NCBI GenBank assembly: GCA_001898145.1
Contig: MKSR01000029.1
Coordinates: forward strand, 124,001-188,000
DNA length: 64,000 nt
Origin: Dyadobacter sp. 50-39
Lineage (GTDB): Bacteria > Bacteroidota > Bacteroidia > Cytophagales > Spirosomataceae
Direction: 5' to 3'
Part shown: positions 35,318 through 44,752 of the stretch, in pieces
Position numbering within the stretch: position 1 is the stretch's first letter
Layout: every line of letters begins with the position of its first letter
The notes under the pieces: model-generated
Told to the model about the DNA's origin: nothing
The model's database searches: none
Seen by the model: only the letters and a program-made list of their open reading frames with translations
Made by a program: the position numbers and the translations under genes

Positions 35318-37174
35318 ATGTCTCTCAACCATACCAAAGAAACCCTGCGGTCAAGGCTAATACTCTCCCTCATTCTCATCGCGGGCCTTGCATTAAGGCT
35401 CTACAACCTCGATCGTTACAGTATTTTCTTCGATGAGGTAAGCACATTGCTCGTCAGCCAGGGTATAGTATTGGAAGGGGCCAATCAGAAGGAGGTTTTT
35501 GCGGTCCGTGAACTGGCCGATTCGCGTTTCTGGACAACCCCGGCACACCCCCAAAAGCAGGTGCTGCGCACATTTACGGCAAACGAAATTTACACCCCCA
35601 AGGCATTTACACCTGCCGAGTTCTGGTCGCCGAAATCCATCGGCGATTACTACGAGGCCATGACGCGGAGCGACATCGGCAACAGCCCCTTCTACTACGC
35701 GCTGCTGCATCCGTGGATTGATATTTTCGGCTTTTCCGACTTTTCGATCCGCTTCTTTTCCGTCATTTTCAGTGTGCTGATCATCGGACTAACCTATCTT
35801 TTCGCAAAACGCTTCTTCGGAATCAAGACGGCGTTGATCGCGGCGGGTATCACGGCCATCGAGCCGTTTTTTATTGCCTACAGCCACCAGGCGCGGAACT
35901 ACTCGCTTACGTTCTTCCTCACACTGGCAGCGACTTATTTCTTTTTACAAATCATTGAAAAAAAGGCTAATAAAAGAGGAATACTATGGCTTTACGCCGG
36001 TTACGTCCTCTCCGCGGGACTAGGACTGCTAAGCCATTTCCTCGTTATTTCCGTGCTGCTGGCGCATGCCATTTATGCGCTGTTTTTCCTCCGCACATTT
36101 AAGGGCTGGGTACGAATGGCCATTGCGGCAGTATTTGCACTTTCGGGTGTGGCGTGGTGGCTGCTGTTTGGCGGTGGGGTATACACGCTATCGTCCCTGC
36201 AATACCAGGCAGATCTGTACCGCAGAATGGCCGAAACCGGCGGACAAGCGTTTGGCAATATCCTTCCGGCGACGCCGCTGAATGTGTTTAACAAGTCTTT
36301 GCCCATTTTCTCCGATCTTGTCCTCTTTACCAATGGCCTCACCGATGCGCTGGGAGGGAAGAAGAACGTTTTCATCGCATTGCTGGTGGCACTGATCCTG
36401 ATCTGCTGGTACCGTTTCAAAGACAGGATCAACACGCCGGCGTGGCTTACACCCCGTTTCCCCTATTTGCTGATCATTTTCACCGCTTTTTTTTACAATA
36501 ATCACAAACTGCAATTCTGCATTCTCAGCGTCAGTTTGTTCGCACTGTCTTTCATTCCCGATTTGCACAAAAGTGCCTCGCGCGAGCAGCGTGCGCGCCT
36601 GTGGCTGCTGTACATTGTGGCGCTGGTACCGACATTGTTCCTGATCCTGATGTCGTTCAAGAATGGGCATACCTATGGCATTATGCAGCGCTACTCCGGC
36701 TTTTCATTCCCTTACGTGATTATTCTGCTGAGTCTGCTGCTCCAATTTTATACAACTCTTAAGGTGGAGTTCCGCGTACTTATTTTCGTATTCCTTGCCG
36801 CCCAGCTCTACTTTGTGGGGTTGAGGTTAAAAGAGTTTTACGAAGACCGCTCGCCAAAATATGGCTATTTCGCGGTGCCGCGCGTACCTAATCCGTACAT
36901 GGAAGCTGCCAAAAAAATCGAAGCCAACTACCAGCCCGGCGACACCATCTTTTACCCGGCCCCGCGTTATGAAGTGCTTTCCGAAATGGACCGGACATTC
37001 CTGCCCTATTCGATCCATGACGCGCAAATTACCAACCTCTATTTTCCCAAAGACGCACAATATGTCCAGGTTATGGACATGAACCAGACGCAGCGGATCT
37101 GGATCAAAAAGCAAGGGCGCGCCGAGCCGCTGGAAATCATGACGCTGACGGGCAAACGTTACGGTTTTGAGTAA
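35318..37174 (+). CDS. GT39 (ArnT/PMT-like) membrane glycosyltransferase
   Basis: A 618-residue polytopic protein with about 10-12 membrane helices. The first periplasmic loop carries the acidic catalytic pair D39-E40 (YSIFFDEVSTLL) typical of GT-C enzymes of the ArnT/PMT class. A soluble C-terminal part (~520-618) follows. Such enzymes take a sugar from a polyprenyl-phosphate donor on the periplasmic side and transfer it to lipid A, protein or another glycan. It opens the plus-strand glycan locus. The GT2 domain of the fusion protein at 38112 could make its donor. Confidence 0.88.
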   Translation: MSLNHTKETLRSRLILSLILIAGLALRLYNLDRYSIFFDEVSTLLVSQGIVLEGANQKEVFAVRELADSRFWTTPAHPQKQVLRTFTANEIYTPKAFTPAEFWSPKSIGDYYEAMTRSDIGNSPFYYALLHPWIDIFGFSDFSIRFFSVIFSVLIIGLTYLFAKRFFGIKTALIAAGITAIEPFFIAYSHQARNYSLTFFLTLAATYFFLQIIEKKANKRGILWLYAGYVLSAGLGLLSHFLVISVLLAHAIYALFFLRTFKGWVRMAIAAVFALSGVAWWLLFGGGVYTLSSLQYQADLYRRMAETGGQAFGNILPATPLNVFNKSLPIFSDLVLFTNGLTDALGGKKNVFIALLVALILICWYRFKDRINTPAWLTPRFPYLLIIFTAFFYNNHKLQFCILSVSLFALSFIPDLHKSASREQRARLWLLYIVALVPTLFLILMSFKNGHTYGIMQRYSGFSFPYVIILLSLLLQFYTTLKVEFRVLIFVFLAAQLYFVGLRLKEFYEDRSPKYGYFAVPRVPNPYMEAAKKIEANYQPGDTIFYPAPRYEVLSEMDRTFLPYSIHDAQITNLYFPKDAQYVQVMDMNQTQRIWIKKQGRAEPLEIMTLTGKRYGFE

Positions 37175-37291: not shown

Positions 37292-38119
37292 ATGACAGCA
37301 CACGAGATATTAAAAGACCCGAAACAGCTGAGCGGCGAACTTCGTCTGAAAATACTGGGGCTTTATCACCAGGCCAACGCCGGCCATATTGGTTGCTCCC
37401 TCAGCTGTATCGACCTGATGATCGCGATTTTATTTCTTCAAAAATCGGCCGATGATACTTTTATTCTTTCCAAAGGCCATGCGGCGGCGGCGCTTTACGC
37501 TTGCCTGAATACCCTTGGGGAAATTACCGACGAAGAACTCAGTACTTTCTATCTCGACGGCACCACATTGCCCGCTCACCCGGCACCGAGGCAGTACAAA
37601 GGCATTCCTTTTGCTACCGGTTCACTTGGGCACGGATTGCCCATTGCGACCGGAATCGCCCACGCGGCGAAAGTTTCGGGCGATGCAACATATTCGTTCG
37701 CGCTGCTGTCTGATGGGGAAACCAACGAAGGTACCACCTGGGAAGCGGCGCATTATGCGATCCAGAATCAGCTCGACAACCTGATCATGCTCATCGACAA
37801 GAATGGTTTGCAGGGGTTCGGGTTCACAGACAAAGTTCTGGGCGAAACCGCATCTGTGGAAAAATGGAAAGCCATCGGCTTCGAAACTGTGGAAGTAGAT
37901 GGGCATGACATTGCAGCCATCGCGGCGGCCATCGCCGAACTGAAAAAGCGCCAGAACGGCTTACCCAAAGCGATTATCGCCAATACGGTCAAAGGAAAAG
38001 GGGTTTCCTACATGGAGAATAAATTGGAATGGCATTACCTGCCGATGAATAAGGACCAGTATGAGCAAGCTACACTGGAAGTAAAGGAACGTTATCTTAA
38101 TGAATTGACGAATGCTTGA
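37292..38119 (+). CDS. Transketolase, N-terminal (TPP-binding) subunit
   Basis: A 275-residue protein equal to the first third of transketolase. Motifs include ANAGHIGCSLSCIDLM, ILSKGHAAAALYACL, HPAPRQYKGIPFATGSLGHGL (split here by family blocks) and the TPP/metal motif LLSDGETNEGTTWEA with DKNG. The partner subunit is at 40185. Such split pairs move a two-carbon ketol unit between sugars; dedicated copies occur in secondary sugar pathways. It overlaps the fused SDR-GT2 gene by 8 bases, which ties it to glycan synthesis rather than to central metabolism. Confidence 0.92.
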   Translation: MTAHEILKDPKQLSGELRLKILGLYHQANAGHIGCSLSCIDLMIAILFLQKSADDTFILSKGHAAAALYACLNTLGEITDEELSTFYLDGTTLPAHPAPRQYKGIPFATGSLGHGLPIATGIAHAAKVSGDATYSFALLSDGETNEGTTWEAAHYAIQNQLDNLIMLIDKNGLQGFGFTDKVLGETASVEKWKAIGFETVEVDGHDIAAIAAAIAELKKRQNGLPKAIIANTVKGKGVSYMENKLEWHYLPMNKDQYEQATLEVKERYLNELTNA

Positions 38120-40106
38120 TCATTTACCGGTTTACCGCGATAAAATACAGAAATTAAAAGGGCCAGTTTTCGTTTTCGGTGCCAGCGGCTTCATCGGCGC
38201 CAATCTCTTCAATGATATATTTAAAATCCGGAAGGACTGCTACGCGGTAACACACGACGCTACCAAAGCATGGCGCCTGAAACTGCTGAATGTGCCATTT
38301 GAAAACATCATCCACTGCGACATTCTCTCGGACAATTCCATCAAGGAGGTATTTGAAAAGTACAAACCGCAAACGATCTTCAATCTTGCGGCCTACGGTG
38401 CATACAGCAAACAAAGCAATGTAAACCTGACGTACGAGACGAACGTGCTCGGCACGGTGAATATCCTTCAAAACTGCACGAAAGATATGGTTTACATCCA
38501 TGCCGGAAGCAGTTCCGAGTATGGTTTCAATTGTACCTCGCCCAAAGAAACAGACCGTGTGGAGCCCAACAGCCATTATGCTGTTTCCAAAGTTTCGGCA
38601 GCCTATTTGCTTGAATATTATGCTAAAGTTGCAGGCCTGAAAACGCTCAACCTGCGCCTTTACTCCATTTACGGGTATTGGGAAGAGCCGGACCGGCTCA
38701 TTCCCCGCCTGATCGAACATGCGCGCAGGAGAAGCCTGCCTTCCCTGGTATCACCCGATATCAGCCGCGATTTTGTGTTTGTGGAAGACTGCGTCGAGGC
38801 ATTCCTGGACGCGGCGCTGAAAATCGATGATGAGAAGTCGGGGCGCTCTTATAACATTGCCACCGGCCGTAAGACCACGATGGGCGACCTCGTGGACGTG
38901 ACCCGCAAAGCTTTCAACATTGCCAAAGAACCCGAATGGGGCAGCATGTCGAACCGCAAATGGGACCTGGCCGAATGGTTTGGTGACCCTACCGCATTCG
39001 AAAACGACTTCGGATGGAAGGCGAGAACTTCCCTGGAAGACGGTCTGACGCGTTACAGCCAGTGGCAGGATGCCGTGCAATACGAGTCACGCCTGATCCC
39101 GGCTTTTGAAAATCCGAAGCTCAACCCGGTCATCACCGCCATTATCGCATGTTATAAAGACGCTCAGGCTATTCCGTTCATGTACGAGCGGCTTGTAAAG
39201 ACTTTCAACGAACTGAAAGTGCGCTACGAAATCATCTTCGTCAACGACAGTTCGCCTGATAACCAGGAGGAAGTCATCAATGCCATTTGTGATAAAGATC
39301 CCAATGTGGTCGGTATCAGCCACTCGCGTAACTTTGGTTCACAGTCGGCTTTCCTGAGCGGGATGGAGATCGCCACGGGCGACTGCGTGGTACTGATGGA
39401 CGGCGACTTGCAAGACCCGCCTGAAATTATCCCGGCATTTTACGAGAAATGGATGGAAGGCTACGACGTCGTGTACGGTGTACGCGTACAGCGTGAGATG
39501 AAACCGCATATCCATTTCTTCTATAAAACATTCTACAAGGTATTCCAGGGACTAAGCTACATTCCTATCCCACGCGACGCGGGCGACTTCTCGATGATCG
39601 ATCGTAAAGTGGTGAAAGAACTCGTAGACTTACCCGAGACGGAGCAGTTCCTGCGCGGTTTGCGGGCATGGGTTGGTTTCAGACAAACCGGCGTACCGTA
39701 CGTTCGTCCGGAAAGGATGTTTGGGGTATCGACCAACAACTGGACAAAAAACATCTGGTGGGCTAAAAAAGCCATATTCTCGTTCAGTTTTGCTCCGCTG
39801 GAACTGATGAGCTATGCGGGTTTCGGCCTCACGGGCCTCTCCATTCTGGGTATTATCTGGCAAATCCTGGCCAAAATCTTTTTCTTCCCGGATACGCCAA
39901 GAGGCCTCAGTACCGTAATTATCCTGATCGTATTCTTTGGCGGGCTCACCATCCTGGGCATTTCATTTTTAGGAGAATATATTACCAAGATATTCGAAGA
40001 GACTAAAAAGCGGCCCAAATATATCCGCACCAGAATACGCCGCGGTCCGAAGGCCTATAAAACCGCCGACGAGATCCGGGCGCTGGTAAAACAGTTGAGA
40101 AAGTAA
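38112..40106 (+). CDS. Fusion of NAD-dependent SDR epimerase and GT2 polyprenyl-phosphate glycosyltransferase
   Basis: A 664-residue two-enzyme chain. Residues 1 to ~330 form an extended SDR: NAD motif GASGFIG (23-29), catalytic region GSSSEYG (132-138), Y156/K160 in HYAVSK. Residues ~339-664 form a GT2 domain of GtrB/ArnC type: IIACYKDAQ, IFVNDSSPDN, metal-binding DGDLQD (430-435), then two membrane helices (~560-645). One protein could therefore modify a nucleotide sugar and load it on polyprenyl phosphate. The frame is continuous, so this is not two adjacent genes. It lies between the two transketolase subunit genes. Confidence 0.93.
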   Translation: MLDHLPVYRDKIQKLKGPVFVFGASGFIGANLFNDIFKIRKDCYAVTHDATKAWRLKLLNVPFENIIHCDILSDNSIKEVFEKYKPQTIFNLAAYGAYSKQSNVNLTYETNVLGTVNILQNCTKDMVYIHAGSSSEYGFNCTSPKETDRVEPNSHYAVSKVSAAYLLEYYAKVAGLKTLNLRLYSIYGYWEEPDRLIPRLIEHARRRSLPSLVSPDISRDFVFVEDCVEAFLDAALKIDDEKSGRSYNIATGRKTTMGDLVDVTRKAFNIAKEPEWGSMSNRKWDLAEWFGDPTAFENDFGWKARTSLEDGLTRYSQWQDAVQYESRLIPAFENPKLNPVITAIIACYKDAQAIPFMYERLVKTFNELKVRYEIIFVNDSSPDNQEEVINAICDKDPNVVGISHSRNFGSQSAFLSGMEIATGDCVVLMDGDLQDPPEIIPAFYEKWMEGYDVVYGVRVQREMKPHIHFFYKTFYKVFQGLSYIPIPRDAGDFSMIDRKVVKELVDLPETEQFLRGLRAWVGFRQTGVPYVRPERMFGVSTNNWTKNIWWAKKAIFSFSFAPLELMSYAGFGLTGLSILGIIWQILAKIFFFPDTPRGLSTVIILIVFFGGLTILGISFLGEYITKIFEETKKRPKYIRTRIRRGPKAYKTADEIRALVKQLRK

Positions 40107-40184
40107 TAAATTGCATGGTATCAGCCCATTAGGCGACCAAACCATTTAAGTTAAGCAACCAATCGGCCTGGCGCCCACTTAACG

Positions 40185-41105
40185 ATGAGAAAAGAATTTT
40201 CAACAGCCATAGAAGAGCTTGCGACAGCAGACGACTCCGTTATTTTCATCACAGGTGATCTTGGCTATAATGCATTGGAAAACCTGCAGGCCAAAATGGG
40301 CAAGCGTTTCATCAATGCCGGTGTGGCGGAGCAGAATATGGTGGGTGTAGCTGCCGGCTTTGCGCATAAAGGTTATAAAGTTTTCTGTTACAGCATCGCG
40401 CCGTTTATCGTATACAGATGCCTCGAACAATTCCGTAACGATGTATGCTTCAACAACTTGCCGGTATTTCTGGTGGGGAATGGAGGCGGATACGGCTACG
40501 GCATCATGGGGAGCAGCCATCATACCATCGAAGACCTGGCCTGTTTGAGCGGTCAGCAGAATGCCCAGGTGTGGGTACCCGCCTTTGCCGACGAGGTCAT
40601 TCCGGTCGTACAGCAAATTGCCGCCGACGCGCGTCCTGCATACCTGCGCCTGGGAGCCGGTAAAACCACTCCTGCAAACAGCTATTTAGCGGGTTCTTTT
40701 AAAGTAATACACCAGCCGGCCCATGCCGAAATCACGGTTTTTGCATTGGGCCCGATCGCCAATAATGTACTCTCCGCACTGGGACTTGCGCCGGAGCTGG
40801 CCGAAAAAGTGAACGTGGTTACTGCCTTGCATTTCCCGCTTGAACTAACGGACGAGCTGATGGCAATGGTAAAAAAAGCGCCGGCGATCCTGGTCGCAGA
40901 AGAGCATATCAGTACCGGCGGCCTTGCACAGCAACTTTCAGTGCAGCTGCTCGAAAAGGGCATTTTCCCTTCGGTATTCAAGAGTCTCAAAGCCGAGGGC
41001 TATCCCAATAGCCGCTACGGCAGCCAAAGCTATCACCAGAAACTTTCCGGACTGGACGCGGATTCGATCTTGTCGAGCATCAGCCAACTAATGATCACGG
41101 CATGA
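40185..41105 (+). CDS. Transketolase, C-terminal subunit
   Basis: A 306-residue protein equal to the pyrimidine-binding and C-terminal thirds of transketolase. The glutamate that activates TPP is expected in FINAGVAEQNMVGVAAG (about residues 43-59). Loop GNGGGYGYGIMGSSHHTIEDLA and the C-terminal domain (TVFALGPIANNVLSAL) are also typical. It pairs with the subunit at 37292 although the fusion gene lies between them. It overlaps the next gene by 4 bases (ATGA), a sign of translational coupling. Confidence 0.92.
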   Translation: MRKEFSTAIEELATADDSVIFITGDLGYNALENLQAKMGKRFINAGVAEQNMVGVAAGFAHKGYKVFCYSIAPFIVYRCLEQFRNDVCFNNLPVFLVGNGGGYGYGIMGSSHHTIEDLACLSGQQNAQVWVPAFADEVIPVVQQIAADARPAYLRLGAGKTTPANSYLAGSFKVIHQPAHAEITVFALGPIANNVLSALGLAPELAEKVNVVTALHFPLELTDELMAMVKKAPAILVAEEHISTGGLAQQLSVQLLEKGIFPSVFKSLKAEGYPNSRYGSQSYHQKLSGLDADSILSSISQLMITA

Positions 41106-42796
41106 CGAAAAAGGCTTTCACCATTATCCTGAGCCTGATCCTGCTGTTACCCGTCGCCATTTACTTCACGGTTTGGGATTACTATGCCATTAATATCCCC
41201 AAGTGGGACGACCATGCATTGAAGACGTTCATCGCCGAATATGCACAGGCTGGCAACTGGCAGGAGAAGATCCAGGCGCTTTTTAAGCAGCATAACGAGC
41301 ACCGAATCGCGCTTACCCGCCTTTTTGCATGGCTCGACTATGCCGTTTTCGGGCACCTCAATTACCGGCACCTGATGACGGCCGGCAACGTGCTGCTGCT
41401 GGCGGCGATTCCGTTGTTTTACGACCTGCTTAAAAAGAACAAAAAGCCGCTTTTTGCGCTGGTACCCATTCCGTTCCTGTGGATGACACTGGCGTTTTGG
41501 GAGAACATGTATTGGGGAATGGCAGCGGTGCAAAACCTCGGTGTGGTAACGCTCGTGCTCTGGACCCTATACCTGGTCATTAATCCCAAAGTATTGCCTT
41601 TCTCCATTGCCGTACTGCTCAGTCTGGTCACCGTTCTCACGAGCGGAAACGGGCTGATGGTGCTCCCGCTCGGTGCCTTTCTGCTCTTCCTAGCGGGTAA
41701 CAGAAAGCGGTTTGCGCTCTGGATCATTGTCAGCATAGGCGAGATCTTCTGCTATTTCTACTGGTATACCAAACCGGAATCCAATCCGGAATCGAAAGCG
41801 GGTATTTTGAAACTCGCCAAAGGCTATATGGCATTCCTGGGCTCATTTGCCGAATCCATACCGGTACTGGATCATTTCAAGGTCTGTCTTTTTCTGGGGA
41901 TCGTCCTGTTCCTGGTGGCGGTTTCAATTGCCTCCACTACCCTTTTCAGGATTGTACGGAATAAGTATTCGGTCAAATTCGAGCGGACGACCGACCTTTT
42001 CTGCCTTGGCGCAATCCTGTTTATCCTTGGGACTGCATTGATCGTGGTGTACACCCGCGCAGGCTTCGGCCTGGAAGGGTTGATTACGAGCCGATACAAA
42101 ATCTATTCGGTACTGCTGCTGATCGTGGCTTACCTGTACGTGGTGGTTCCCATTCGCGGCAGTTTCCTTTCGCCTTACATTACCGCCATCATCGCATTGG
42201 CGGTGACATTTAACGTGTTCAGCTACCATTACCACCTCGTGGATGCCTACAACCTGAGGAAACAGCTCGTAACCTCCCAGTTCAACTGGACATTTACGGA
42301 TAAGTCTCTGAAGTACCCGGCCGATACTTCGTTTGCCGCCAATATCGTTGAAAAAACACCTGTTATTTACGATAAATGGCTGCCGCTCATAGCCATCGCC
42401 GATCGCCAGAACTATGCCGGCAGCTCGCGGGGAATGGTGGATTTGTATGATAAAACCACATTTACGACCGACACTGCCTCCATTAGGGTTACCAACACCT
42501 CGTTCACCAGCCAGCGCTTGCAGGACAGCGGTGTGTACGTGCTGCTCAGTTCGGATGAATGCTATTATATTTTCCCGGCTTTGCGCACACGTAACACGAG
42601 CCGCAAGCAGCTGTTTCTCAAACAATACTATTTCGCGCCCGGCTTTTATGCAGATATTCCTTTCTCGGAAATGGATAAGGGCACTTACAGGGTGGCGCTG
42701 CTCCATCAGCAGGGGAACGAAACCGGCATTCTGTTCAAGGACCAGCGGGTAACGGTCAAAGAATCGCATAAAAAAGAAGTGAAAGTTAACTGGTAA
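41102..42796 (+). CDS. Polytopic membrane protein, possible GT-C transferase
   Basis: A 564-residue protein with about 10-11 hydrophobic helices up to residue ~390 and a soluble C-terminal region of ~170 residues. The first extracytoplasmic loop has an acidic motif, PKWDDHALKTF, and HRIALTRLFAWLDY follows. The layout resembles GT-C glycosyltransferases, whose catalytic acid sits in that loop, but I do not recognise a family. Position, translationally coupled to the transketolase subunit and 2 bases before an acyltransferase, supports a role in glycan transfer or export. Confidence 0.7.
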   Translation: MTKKAFTIILSLILLLPVAIYFTVWDYYAINIPKWDDHALKTFIAEYAQAGNWQEKIQALFKQHNEHRIALTRLFAWLDYAVFGHLNYRHLMTAGNVLLLAAIPLFYDLLKKNKKPLFALVPIPFLWMTLAFWENMYWGMAAVQNLGVVTLVLWTLYLVINPKVLPFSIAVLLSLVTVLTSGNGLMVLPLGAFLLFLAGNRKRFALWIIVSIGEIFCYFYWYTKPESNPESKAGILKLAKGYMAFLGSFAESIPVLDHFKVCLFLGIVLFLVAVSIASTTLFRIVRNKYSVKFERTTDLFCLGAILFILGTALIVVYTRAGFGLEGLITSRYKIYSVLLLIVAYLYVVVPIRGSFLSPYITAIIALAVTFNVFSYHYHLVDAYNLRKQLVTSQFNWTFTDKSLKYPADTSFAANIVEKTPVIYDKWLPLIAIADRQNYAGSSRGMVDLYDKTTFTTDTASIRVTNTSFTSQRLQDSGVYVLLSSDECYYIFPALRTRNTSRKQLFLKQYYFAPGFYADIPFSEMDKGTYRVALLHQQGNETGILFKDQRVTVKESHKKEVKVNW

Positions 42797-42798
42797 CC

Positions 42799-43935
42799 AT
42801 GCGCACCAATTCAGAAGGACACATTATTCAACTTGACGGCGTGCGCTTTATTGCAGTGGGACTGGTTCTGCTCGACCACCTCATCGTAGAGATCAATATC
42901 ATCCCGTTCGGTGCCCTCGGCGTGACCATTTTTTTCGTACTCAGCGGCTTCCTGATCTCCCGCATTCTGCTCAAAAGCAAGGAGAAAACGTACGGAACAC
43001 CCGGGGGATTCAAGAAGTACCTGCGCAAGTTCCTGATCCGCAGGACGATCCGGATTTTTCCGGTATACTACCTCATCATCGCATTGCTGTTCATTTTCAA
43101 TGTGCCGCCGGTCCGCGATAAGCTGGCCTGGCTCGCATTGTACGGCACCAACATTTACATTGCCCTGCACAAAACATGGATGGGCTCGGTGGACCATTTG
43201 TGGTCGCTGGCGGTAGAAGAGCAGGTGTATCTTTTCTTCCCGTTCCTGATATTCTTCATTCCTAAAAACAGACTGGTGCCCGTGCTGGGCCTGATGGGCA
43301 TTTTCAGCATTGTCCTGCGGGCATACATTTTTTACACGGGCAGGATACCAGGCACCAACTTCGTTACAATGGGCGAGTGGACAGTCGCGTACGTATCTAC
43401 GCCCGCGTGCTTCGACTCTTTCGCATTGGGCGGGCTCATGGCCTGGACACAGCTTTACAAAAATGATCTGTTTGTTAAATTCTTCGGTAAATCGTGGCCG
43501 GTACTGCTTGGGTTACTGGGCTGGGTGCTGGTACAATGGTGGGCCAAATCGCTGGCGCAGCCTTTCAACTTTCCGTACGTGGTGCTCGACAGAACCATGT
43601 CATCTATTTTCGGGTTTATGCTCATAGGACGCGCAGTGATGGGTTTCAAGGGTTGGATGGCCGCGTTCCTGGAAAATCCGGTGTGTATTTATCTTGGCAA
43701 AATCAGCTATGGCCTGTACCTGTACCACAATTTTGTATACAACCACTTTCACAGCGGCCCCATGCACCCGACGGTCAGGCTTTTCCGGAAAATCTATCAG
43801 TATATCCCCAGCCTGGAAGGCAATATCGCATTCGAAGCAACGGTGGTAGTGGCACTTACTGTCTTAGTGGCGTCGGTTTCCTGGCACTTTTTCGAGAAAC
43901 CGATTAACGCACTGAAAGACAAGTACGCTTACTAA
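42799..43935 (+). CDS. OafA/YrhL-like acyltransferase (acyltransferase 3 family)
   Basis: A 378-residue membrane protein with about ten helices. The family histidine is H27 in LVLLDHLIVE, and LDGVRFIAVGLV and LWSLAVEEQVYLFFPF are hallmark segments. Acyltransferase 3 proteins move acyl groups, usually acetyl, across the membrane onto surface sugars. It lacks the C-terminal SGNH domain of OafA. An SGNH-like protein is encoded separately at 47447, so the two may act as a pair. It starts 2 bases after the previous gene. Confidence 0.92.
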   Translation: MRTNSEGHIIQLDGVRFIAVGLVLLDHLIVEINIIPFGALGVTIFFVLSGFLISRILLKSKEKTYGTPGGFKKYLRKFLIRRTIRIFPVYYLIIALLFIFNVPPVRDKLAWLALYGTNIYIALHKTWMGSVDHLWSLAVEEQVYLFFPFLIFFIPKNRLVPVLGLMGIFSIVLRAYIFYTGRIPGTNFVTMGEWTVAYVSTPACFDSFALGGLMAWTQLYKNDLFVKFFGKSWPVLLGLLGWVLVQWWAKSLAQPFNFPYVVLDRTMSSIFGFMLIGRAVMGFKGWMAAFLENPVCIYLGKISYGLYLYHNFVYNHFHSGPMHPTVRLFRKIYQYIPSLEGNIAFEATVVVALTVLVASVSWHFFEKPINALKDKYAY

Positions 43936-44008: not shown

Positions 44009-44752
44009 ATGTCATATCTTCTGAGTATAGTAATGCCCGCATACAATGAGCAGGATTGTATCGAAAAAGTAGTTTATAATTGGACCTCCTTCCTCAAAAC
44101 CAAATTCCCCAACGATAACACTACCCTGATCGTCATCAACGACGGATCGAAAGACAATACCAAGGTATTACTGGACAAACTGGACGCCGAGATCGACAAT
44201 CTCACGGTGGTTAACCAGAAGAACGGCGGGCATGGCAACGCGGTCGTAAACGGCTACCGCAAGGCGCTGGAACTGGGCTCGGAATATGTGTTCCAGACCG
44301 ACAGCGACGATCAATTTGTTTCCGACGATTTTGACAAGCTCTGGGCCAAACGTACCCAGTCGCAATTCATACTCGGCTACCGCCAGGTAAGGCATGATGC
44401 CGGCGTACGCCTTTTTATCACGAAATTCCTCCGCGGTACGATCTCCGCTGTGTATGGTACCTTCATCATGGACAGCAACATCCCGTTCCGTCTCATCAAA
44501 GGAACATTCCTGCAAAAACTGATGAACCAGCTGCCCAACCCGGAACCGTTCGCACCGAACATTTTCCTGGCTGTAATGGCTAAAAAATCGGGGCAGGAAC
44601 TGTTCGACATCCCTATCACTCACAAAGACCGGGAAACCGGCACCGTTTCGATCGTGAAATGGAACCTTTGGAAAGTTTGTATTCGAAGCTTTAAAGAACT
44701 CCTGCGGTTTCGCCTCGAACTGAATGATAAAGTGAAAGCGATCCGCGCTTAA
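44009..44752 (+). CDS. GT2 family glycosyltransferase, soluble
   Basis: A 247-residue GT-A protein without clear membrane helices. The nucleotide-binding start is SIVMPAYNEQDCIEK, the VINDGSKDNTKV block follows, and the metal site is QTDSDDQFVSDD (about 94-106). The family transfers sugars from nucleotide donors to lipid carriers or growing glycans. It lies 73 bases after the acyltransferase gene and 11 bases before the propeller protein gene. Donor and acceptor unknown. Confidence 0.9.
   Translation: MSYLLSIVMPAYNEQDCIEKVVYNWTSFLKTKFPNDNTTLIVINDGSKDNTKVLLDKLDAEIDNLTVVNQKNGGHGNAVVNGYRKALELGSEYVFQTDSDDQFVSDDFDKLWAKRTQSQFILGYRQVRHDAGVRLFITKFLRGTISAVYGTFIMDSNIPFRLIKGTFLQKLMNQLPNPEPFAPNIFLAVMAKKSGQELFDIPITHKDRETGTVSIVKWNLWKVCIRSFKELLRFRLELNDKVKAIRA

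What the first reader, a model, noticed from the sequence alone, without database searches (positions are those of the whole stretch)
37292..41105. Split transketolase genes flank a fused SDR-GT2 gene: candidate pathway for an unusual lipid-linked sugar
Seen: transketolase N-subunit, then a 664-residue SDR-GT2 fusion (8-base overlap), then the transketolase C-subunit, which is coupled by ATGA to the next glycan gene. Known: transketolase pairs transfer two-carbon units, SDRs make or modify keto-sugars, and GtrB/ArnC-type GT2 domains load polyprenyl phosphate. Inference: the transketolase may extend or branch a nucleotide-linked keto-sugar that the fusion protein then finishes and loads on the carrier, parallel to ArnA-ArnC-ArnT but with two-carbon chemistry. 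I know of no described pathway with this arrangement.
Basis: partly seen in the sequence, partly recalled or inferred. Interest (0 to 1): 0.8.

Follow-up and report, generated by a model that had tools for sequence, protein, structure and literature searches.

The report
Candidate two-carbon sugar-branching glycan module
A bacterium carries a conserved gene set in which a re-shaped transketolase sits with a fused sugar-reductase/lipid-loading enzyme, most likely to build a branched sugar for a surface glycan; the sugar itself is still unknown.

Summary
In detail: a 275-aa transketolase N-subunit, a 664-aa SDR-GT2 fusion and a 306-aa transketolase C-subunit lie in one operon, in Dyadobacter or close kin.

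The genome has two other split transketolase pairs. TKN-fusion-TKC order holds in 72 of 80 loci; 2 have TKN-TKC-fusion; in 6 a contig end intervenes. TKN-TKC-fusion also occurs in another family of the order and on a Methylobacterium plasmid.

The C-subunit groups with others from nucleotide-sugar or glycan-type contexts, three with rfbF-rfbG-rfbH, which supply the acceptor of YerE. In 76 of 76 C-subunits seen among these loci His416 and Asp424 (human numbering) are Gly and Met; the N-subunit His residues are kept.

Best reading: the pair transfers a C2 ketol unit to a keto-sugar, a transketolase counterpart of YerE; the SDR domain finishes the sugar, the GtrB-like domain loads it on polyprenyl phosphate, GT-C enzymes use it.

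Donor, acceptor and product are not shown. No CDP-glucose dehydratase over cut-off was found in this genome, and a catabolic-looking pair has lost the same two residues. New variant of a known kind.

The parts
37292..38119 (+). Split transketolase N-subunit (ThDP-binding part), 275 aa
   Evidence: Pfam Transketolase_N 9.9e-31; best PDB match 6yak, N-chain of a split transketolase, 1.9e-49; His37/77/110 equivalents kept in 76 of 77 loci (one not covered) and His258 in 77 of 77
38112..40106 (+). SDR-GT2 fusion, 664 aa: extended SDR (about aa 1-330) and GtrB/ArnC-type GT2 with C-terminal membrane helices (about aa 331-664)
40185..41105 (+). Split transketolase C-subunit (pyrimidine and C-terminal domains), 306 aa, with changed acceptor/phosphate pocket
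   Evidence: Pfam Transket_pyr 4.1e-25; PDB 6yaj 4.2e-27; H416->G and D424->M in 76 of 76 sequences from the 80 loci, E366 and R474 kept in 76 of 76
41102..42796 (+). GT-C-fold membrane protein (by prediction), 564 aa, no Pfam match; start overlaps TKC stop (ATGA)
35318..37174 (+). PMT_2-type GT-C protein upstream, 618 aa
   Evidence: Pfam PMT_2 9.1e-18; a match in 67 of the 80 loci, some of which are short
42799..43935 (+). Acyltransferase-3 family membrane protein
   Evidence: Pfam Acyl_transf_3 3.2e-22; a match in 67 of 80 loci
44009..44752 (+). Second GT2, 247 aa, much shorter than GtrB
   Evidence: Pfam Glycos_transf_2 7.5e-17; a match in 69 of 80 loci, median identity 72.5%

Best explanation
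The three genes form a module that makes an unusual, probably two-carbon-branched or two-carbon-extended sugar and loads it on polyprenyl phosphate. The split transketolase takes a ketol (C2) unit from a ketose donor and adds it to a carbonyl of an activated keto-sugar, doing with transketolase chemistry what YerE does with pyruvate in yersiniose synthesis. The SDR domain finishes the sugar, most simply by reducing the new keto group; it could instead create the acceptor ketone first. The GtrB-like domain fused to it transfers the finished sugar to polyprenyl phosphate, and the GT-C proteins beside it move the sugar to a periplasmic glycan. Shown: gene order and its conservation, domain assignments, the group of the C-subunit, the pocket changes, and the GT-C fold of the next gene by prediction. 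Inferred: the C2 transfer to a keto-sugar, the role of the SDR, the donor, the acceptor, the carrier and the destination.
For: TKN-fusion-TKC in 72 of 80 loci; TKN-TKC-fusion in L115, L116, L123, L197, L198 and Methylobacterium L139. The Methylobacterium fusion is 46.1% identical over 98%. TKC tree of 51 rows: the ten fused-module rows form a group 100/100, and these ten plus the eight non-module glycan-context rows lie on one side of a split 97/97, with canonical, C20-type and DXS rows on the other (the DXS rows checked). Of those eight loci 4 carry rfbF and rfbG (L133, L136, L137, L138), 3 of these also rfbH; the other 4 have a DegT aminotransferase (L122), a dTDP-glucose-dehydratase-like SDR (L134), pseB-pseC (L140) or an NAD(P)-dependent oxidoreductase (L141). 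L136 has TKN-TKC-SDR followed by a GtrB-like GT2 as separate genes. Paenibacillus L138 has an SDR fused to TKN in a rfbF-rfbG cluster. Pocket: H416->G and D424->M in 76 of 76, N-subunit His kept; changes at S385, D469 and R520 of the E. coli enzyme moved its acceptor range to non-phosphorylated and aromatic aldehydes (PMC5073344, passages). Precedent: the two-subunit transketolase Rif15 uses fructose-6-phosphate as C2 donor for rifamycin S, which bears a C-4 keto group (PMC6002545, passages). Two other pairs exist in the genome. GT2 is of GtrB type; next gene GT-C.
Against: No CDP-glucose 4,6-dehydratase over cut-off in this genome, and no gene for a keto-sugar was recognised in the module itself; two dTDP-glucose 4,6-dehydratases over cut-off lie elsewhere. 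The same two pocket residues are lost in the genome's C20 pair, which sits by an isomerase-like gene (in its relative L135 beside ORFs I read by eye as ABC transporter and FGGY kinase), so the loss does not by itself point to nucleotide sugars. The S345 position is mixed (N 58, A 10, S 7, K 1 of 76), and R318 and R474 are kept, so a phosphate could still bind. SDRs near the non-module pairs are only 21-27% identical to the SDR domain, so that parallel is of role, not of orthology. The eight contexts are not a random sample: I opened 5 of the 8 non-family hits and 5 of the 382 records, all found by likeness to the window's C-subunit. The tree program warns of long branches among them and of odd letter make-up in four rows. 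No flippase was seen beside the module; GtrA genes lie on contigs C12 and C40. 69 of 150 family genomes show neither a near-full-length fusion nor a listed piece of it (my count), so the module is dispensable.
Confidence: 0.5

Rival explanations
1. The transketolase pair makes a free, unusual sugar (a longer ketose or aldose phosphate) from ordinary sugars; the sugar is then activated by enzymes elsewhere, modified by the SDR domain as a nucleotide sugar and loaded by the GT2 domain. No C-branching of a nucleotide sugar takes place.
For: N-subunit ketol-binding His and the R318/R474 equivalents are kept, so sugar phosphates may still bind; rpe (named from its product by eye), which would make xylulose-5-phosphate, lies in the same conserved neighbourhood; the related C20 pair looks catabolic.
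Against: No kinase or nucleotidyltransferase was recognised in the module; relatives of the C-subunit lie next to rfbF-rfbG-rfbH, which already provide an activated keto-sugar; His416 and Asp424 lost in 76 of 76.
Confidence: 0.2
2. The SDR domain and the transketolase act on the sugar after it has been loaded on the lipid carrier, comparable in place to the DprE1/DprE2 steps of mycobacteria (recalled); the fusion keeps the SDR at the membrane for that reason.
For: The SDR is covalently held to a GT2 with C-terminal membrane helices in two phyla, which brings it close to the lipid-linked product.
Against: The SDR is nearest to nucleotide-sugar enzymes (GalE, Rmd, RmlB, WbmF); in several non-fused clusters TK and SDR accompany nucleotide-sugar genes.
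Confidence: 0.12
3. The pair is an ordinary spare pentose-phosphate transketolase that happens to lie in a glycan operon.
For: Best NCBIfam match is the plain transketolase model NF004559, though under its cut-off for either chain.
Against: Two other pairs exist; both subunits lie beside the fusion in 74 of 80 loci, a contig end intervening in the other 6; separate group in the tree; acceptor-pocket changes fixed in 76 of 76.
Confidence: 0.08
4. The enzyme is a pyruvate-type C2 (acetyl) transferase with a transketolase fold, giving an acetyl branch exactly as YerE or the AviB1/AviB2 type do.
For: The rfbF-rfbG-rfbH neighbours of three relatives supply the very acceptor used by YerE.
Against: The His residues of the N-subunit that hold the ketol part in transketolases (role recalled) are kept, and DXS, which uses pyruvate (recalled), lies on the other side of the tree's main split.
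Confidence: 0.1

Closest known systems
YerE/yersiniose-type C2 branching of CDP-3,6-dideoxy-4-keto-glucose in O-antigens (PMC12247030, passages; PMC4753412, passages)
   Same: ThDP enzyme adds two carbons to a keto-sugar for a cell-surface glycan; a reduction of the new keto group follows; some relatives of the window's transketolase lie beside the same CDP-sugar genes
   Different: YerE is a decarboxylase-superfamily enzyme using pyruvate; here a split transketolase with the ketol-type His residues; no CDP-glucose dehydratase over cut-off in this genome; SDR fused to GT2
Split-gene transketolases proposed for miharamycin and amipurimycin (PMC12247030, section 2.3 read)
   Same: Split transketolase proposed to move a hydroxyacetyl group to a keto-sugar
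   Different: Those are natural-product pathways and untested; the review mentions 13 further candidates, all from Streptomycetes; here glycan-type genes in Bacteroidota, Pseudomonadota, Bacillota and Thermodesulfobacteriota records
Rif15 two-subunit transketolase of rifamycin synthesis (PMC6002545, passages)
   Same: Two-chain transketolase with F6P as donor and a non-sugar keto acceptor, both chains needed
   Different: Polyketide acceptor, and the product rearranges to a C-O bond
GtrB (sll0501) and ArnC polyprenyl-phosphate sugar transferases
   Same: GT2 domain with DGDLQDPPE motif and C-terminal membrane helices; 34-37% identity to GtrB and 22-24% to ArnC in the Foldseek rows shown
   Different: Here fused to an extended SDR at its N-terminus
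Three-component periplasmic glycosylation (loader, flippase, GT-C; PMC11127046, abstract and passages)
   Same: Loader plus GT-C genes side by side
   Different: No flippase gene seen beside the module; sugar probably made by a transketolase-SDR set instead of taken from the common pool
wps-2 exopolysaccharide cluster of Actinoplanes missouriensis (PMC13390465, passages)
   Same: A transketolase N and C pair inside an exopolysaccharide cluster with DegT aminotransferases
   Different: No SDR-GT2 fusion in the passages seen; no role proposed there; cluster deletion gave normal sporangia

Membership tests
Transketolase (ThDP, split-chain type) | Transketolase_N, Transket_pyr and Transketolase_C domains over two chains | tested here: met
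   Transketolase_C scores under its cut-off (20.9 against 25.9 bits)
Transketolase (ThDP, split-chain type) | ThDP/Mg site (Asp155, Asn185), catalytic Glu366 and ketol-binding His of the N-subunit | tested here: met
   kept in every covered row (76 or 77); the roles are recalled
Pentose-phosphate transketolase | Phosphate/acceptor pocket with Ser345, His416, Asp424, Arg474 (human numbering; roles recalled) | tested here: not met
   His416 and Asp424 lost in 76 of 76, Ser345 kept in 7 of 76, Arg474 kept in 76 of 76; own canonical pair keeps the SHAGLTLGEDG stretch
YerE-like C-branching enzyme | Decarboxylase-superfamily ThDP protein | tested here: not met
   only transketolase, DXS and E1 families match either chain
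YerE-like C-branching enzyme | C2 transfer to a keto-sugar | not testable with these tools
   needs an assay
GtrB/ArnC polyprenyl-phosphate sugar transferase | GT2 fold with D-x-D motif and C-terminal transmembrane helices | tested here: met
GtrB/ArnC polyprenyl-phosphate sugar transferase | Sugar transfer to polyprenyl phosphate | not testable with these tools
   needs an assay
Extended SDR acting on nucleotide sugars | GxxGxxG and YxxxK motifs in a Rossmann fold | tested here: met
   the substrate is not tested
NDP-sugar 4,6-dehydratase | T/S-D/S-E-x-Y-G dehydratase motif (recalled) | tested here: inconclusive
   SSSEYG aligns with SSEEYG of the reductase Rmd (2pk3); best SDR family score is dTDP-glucose dehydratase but far under cut-off (98.5 of 365 bits)
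GT-C glycosyltransferase (41102-42796) | GT-C fold | tested here: met
GT-C glycosyltransferase (41102-42796) | Catalytic acidic residues in the first periplasmic loop | tested here: inconclusive
   D36-D37 invariant in 18 sequences; topology not tested
Gtr three-component system | Flippase encoded with loader and GT-C | tested here: inconclusive
   None among the ten products scanned; GtrA genes on other contigs; MATE and SMR families not searched in the genome

The most novel reading that the evidence does not exclude
A whole lineage of split transketolases, seen here in records of four phyla, has left central metabolism to make C2-branched sugars for bacterial surface glycans, and in Spirosomataceae, their order-mates and Methylobacterium it has become a fixed module in which one fused protein finishes the branched sugar and loads it on the lipid carrier.
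Probability: 0.42. Interest if true: 0.78.

Novelty: new variant of a known kind. Interest (0 to 1): 0.6.

Why it matters
If true, it adds transketolases to the enzymes that build branched sugars in bacterial envelopes, a role the 2025 review read here gives to YerE-like enzymes. That review knows transketolases for this chemistry only as untested proposals, with its 13 further candidates all from Streptomycetes. It would supply many well-conserved enzymes for making tertiary alcohols, and would predict unknown sugars in the glycans of this family, where 81 of 150 sampled genomes carry the fusion whole or in pieces (my count).

Tried and rejected
Only transketolase of the genome: rejected, two further pairs. 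Chance neighbourhood: rejected. Fusion confined to one family: first suggested by the phylum samples (fusion 2 of 395, SDR domain alone 2 of 395, at strict limits), then rejected, since three genomes of two other families of the order and a Methylobacterium plasmid also carry it. SDRs near the non-module pairs as orthologues of the SDR domain: rejected, 21-27% identity. CDP-sugar route in this genome: no CDP-glucose dehydratase over cut-off. Methyltransferases seen beside divergent modules as a fixed part: rejected for this genome, where one of the two families was searched and gave only weak matches on other contigs. Sinorhizobium and Roseibium SDR-GT2 pairs: CDP-sugar clusters without an annotated transketolase, 27-28% identical, so treated as analogues. 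dN/dS: dS could not be computed for most pairs, not used. Plain Foldseek for the 564-aa protein gave nothing under E 0.001; the GT-C call rests on the second aligner and the motif. G550 (L196): fusion close to a contig end, no transketolase match in the 10,182 bases read, neither for nor against. Defence-system models: no match. Phage records: no match at 1e-60. Literature on glycans of this family: searches gave listings only, nothing seen on the sugar.
Full report
Observation. Pfam confirms the domains. The best PDB matches of the two subunits are the two chains of the split transketolase of Carboxydothermus hydrogenoformans. The GT2 half best matches GtrB (sll0501) by sequence and by fold. 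The window lies on a 7.72-Mb genome of 48 contigs; the nearest named loci are Dyadobacter, up to 98% identity of the fusion.

Other transketolases: the genome has three split pairs, on contigs C46, C20 and C29 (this one). Order in relatives: of 80 loci fetched by the fusion, 72 have TKN-fusion-TKC, 2 (L115, L116) have TKN-TKC-fusion, and in 6 a contig end lies 0 to 1,446 bases from the fusion on the side of the missing partner or partners. Similar genes flank it in many of these loci: a PMT_2 protein upstream; the 564-aa protein, an acyltransferase, a second GT2, a DUF3352 protein and an SGNH-like protein downstream (label of the last is mine). In 150 genomes sampled from the family, 79 have the fusion near full length by my count of the rows and 2 more (G060, G025) in pieces; the remaining matches of that table cover the GT2 half only, and 21 genomes have no match at its limit. 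All 17 genomes of the same genus in that sample, the window's own included, have it. In 395 genomes sampled from the phylum 2 have it at 1e-120; in 213 of the order 14 have it, 3 of them from two other families. Two of these three (L197, L198) show TKN-TKC-fusion followed by two methyltransferases; in the third (L196) the fusion lies close to a contig end and no transketolase was seen.

Beyond the phylum. A plasmid search with the C-subunit listed first, of 382 records, Methylobacterium aquaticum. Its DNA, unannotated in that collection, holds TKN, TKC and a 655-aa SDR-GT2 fusion, 46.1% identical over 98%, then an ORF without a Pfam match that looks membrane-bound by eye and, on the other strand, a methyltransferase. 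So the module is not a family peculiarity, and TKN-TKC-fusion may be the older order (inference from its wider spread).

Where the transketolase comes from. I opened the surroundings of ten further C-subunits: 5 of the 8 non-family hits and the first 5 of the 382 records. They were found by likeness to the window's C-subunit and are no random sample. One is the Methylobacterium module. One (L135) is catabolic in context by eye and falls with the C20 pair. The other eight: L133 and L136 have rfbF, rfbG and rfbH, all far above the NCBIfam cut-offs; L137 (Methylovirgula) has rfbF-rfbG-oxidoreductase-rfbH-TKN-TKC with a GT2 and a GtrA gene on the other strand; L138 (Paenibacillus) has rfbF-rfbG, a methyltransferase, a 635-aa protein that is an SDR fused to TKN, and TKC; L122 has a DegT-type aminotransferase; L134 has a dTDP-glucose-dehydratase-like SDR next to TKN, and methyltransferase-like ORFs; L140 has pseB and pseC; L141 has an NAD(P)-dependent oxidoreductase and a B12-binding radical SAM gene. 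L136 continues TKN-TKC-SDR and then a GtrB-like GT2 as separate genes, an unfused counterpart of the window's arrangement, though its SDR is only distantly related. A tree of 51 C-subunits puts these eight and ten fused-module rows on one side of a split (97/97), the fused-module rows in a group of their own (100/100), and canonical, C20-type and DXS rows on the other side; the program warns of long branches among the eight and of odd letter make-up in four rows, and the root is for drawing only (DXS rows checked).

The active site. Mapped through the human alignment printed (roles of residues recalled): in the 76 C-subunits of the 80 loci, Arg318, Glu366 and Arg474 equivalents are kept, His416 is Gly and Asp424 is Met in all 76; Ser345 is N in 58, A in 10, S in 7, K in 1. 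The His residues of the N-subunit that hold the ketol part are kept wherever covered. The eight relatives also lack His416 and Asp424; the genome's canonical pair has both. In E. coli transketolase, engineered changes at S385, D469 and R520 moved the acceptor range from phosphorylated aldehydes to non-phosphorylated and aromatic ones (PMC5073344, passages); that D469 is human D424 and S385 is human S345 is recalled. Against over-reading: the C20 pair, which sits by an isomerase-like gene, has lost the same two residues.

Known systems. YerE adds two carbons from pyruvate to CDP-3,6-dideoxy-4-keto-glucose for O-antigens (PMC12247030, passages). The same review says split transketolases were proposed for miharamycin and amipurimycin, that this is untested, and that 13 further candidates all come from Streptomycetes (section 2.3 read). 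Rif15 shows that a two-subunit transketolase can use a large keto acceptor with F6P (PMC6002545, passages). A 2026 paper lists a transketolase pair in an Actinoplanes exopolysaccharide cluster without a stated role in the passages seen (PMC13390465). Ten searches of the open-access library listed no paper that I recognised as describing an SDR-GT2 fusion with a transketolase pair; subscription papers, such as the Krug 2024 study cited by the review, were not seen.

Verdict. Real, conserved, and best read as a new variant of ThDP-dependent sugar branching for surface glycans, at about even odds for the chemistry.

Noticed in passing
L139:8111-11861 (Methylobacterium aquaticum plasmid pMaq22A_1p): The whole TKN-TKC-SDR-GT2 module lies on a plasmid that is unannotated in the collection used.
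   Followed up: partly
L138:7097-9004 (Paenibacillus cellulosilyticus plasmid): SDR fused to transketolase N-subunit in a CDP-sugar cluster, followed by the C-subunit.
   Followed up: partly
G000:C20:71125-72878 (L002) and L135:6853-10110: A further split transketolase pair next to an isomerase-like gene, in the relative beside ORFs that look like an ABC transporter and an FGGY kinase; it too lacks the canonical His/Asp of the acceptor pocket, so it may act on an unusual sugar in catabolism.
   Followed up: partly
L133:16101-16874: A second, different transketolase N-subunit about 9 kb after the first pair in the same glycan cluster.
   Followed up: no
window 41102-42796 and tandem copies in L081, L089, L091, L103, L111: GT-C-fold family without a Pfam model, in tandem copies in some Larkinella, Spirosoma and Arsenicibacter loci and far more divergent (median 35.8% identity) than the sugar-making genes.
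   Followed up: partly
L107, L110, L115, L116, L123, L139, L197, L198: Two class I methyltransferase families recur beside divergent copies of the module, which suggests a methylated sugar or glycan there.
   Followed up: partly
L071:12024-13703 (Runella): An extra protein of 559 aa, membrane-bound by eye, is encoded between the fusion and the C-subunit.
   Followed up: no
L150 and L151 (Sinorhizobium pSymB, Roseibium plasmid): CDP-sugar clusters with an SDR followed by a GtrB-like GT2 but no annotated transketolase, a looser parallel to the fusion.
   Followed up: partly
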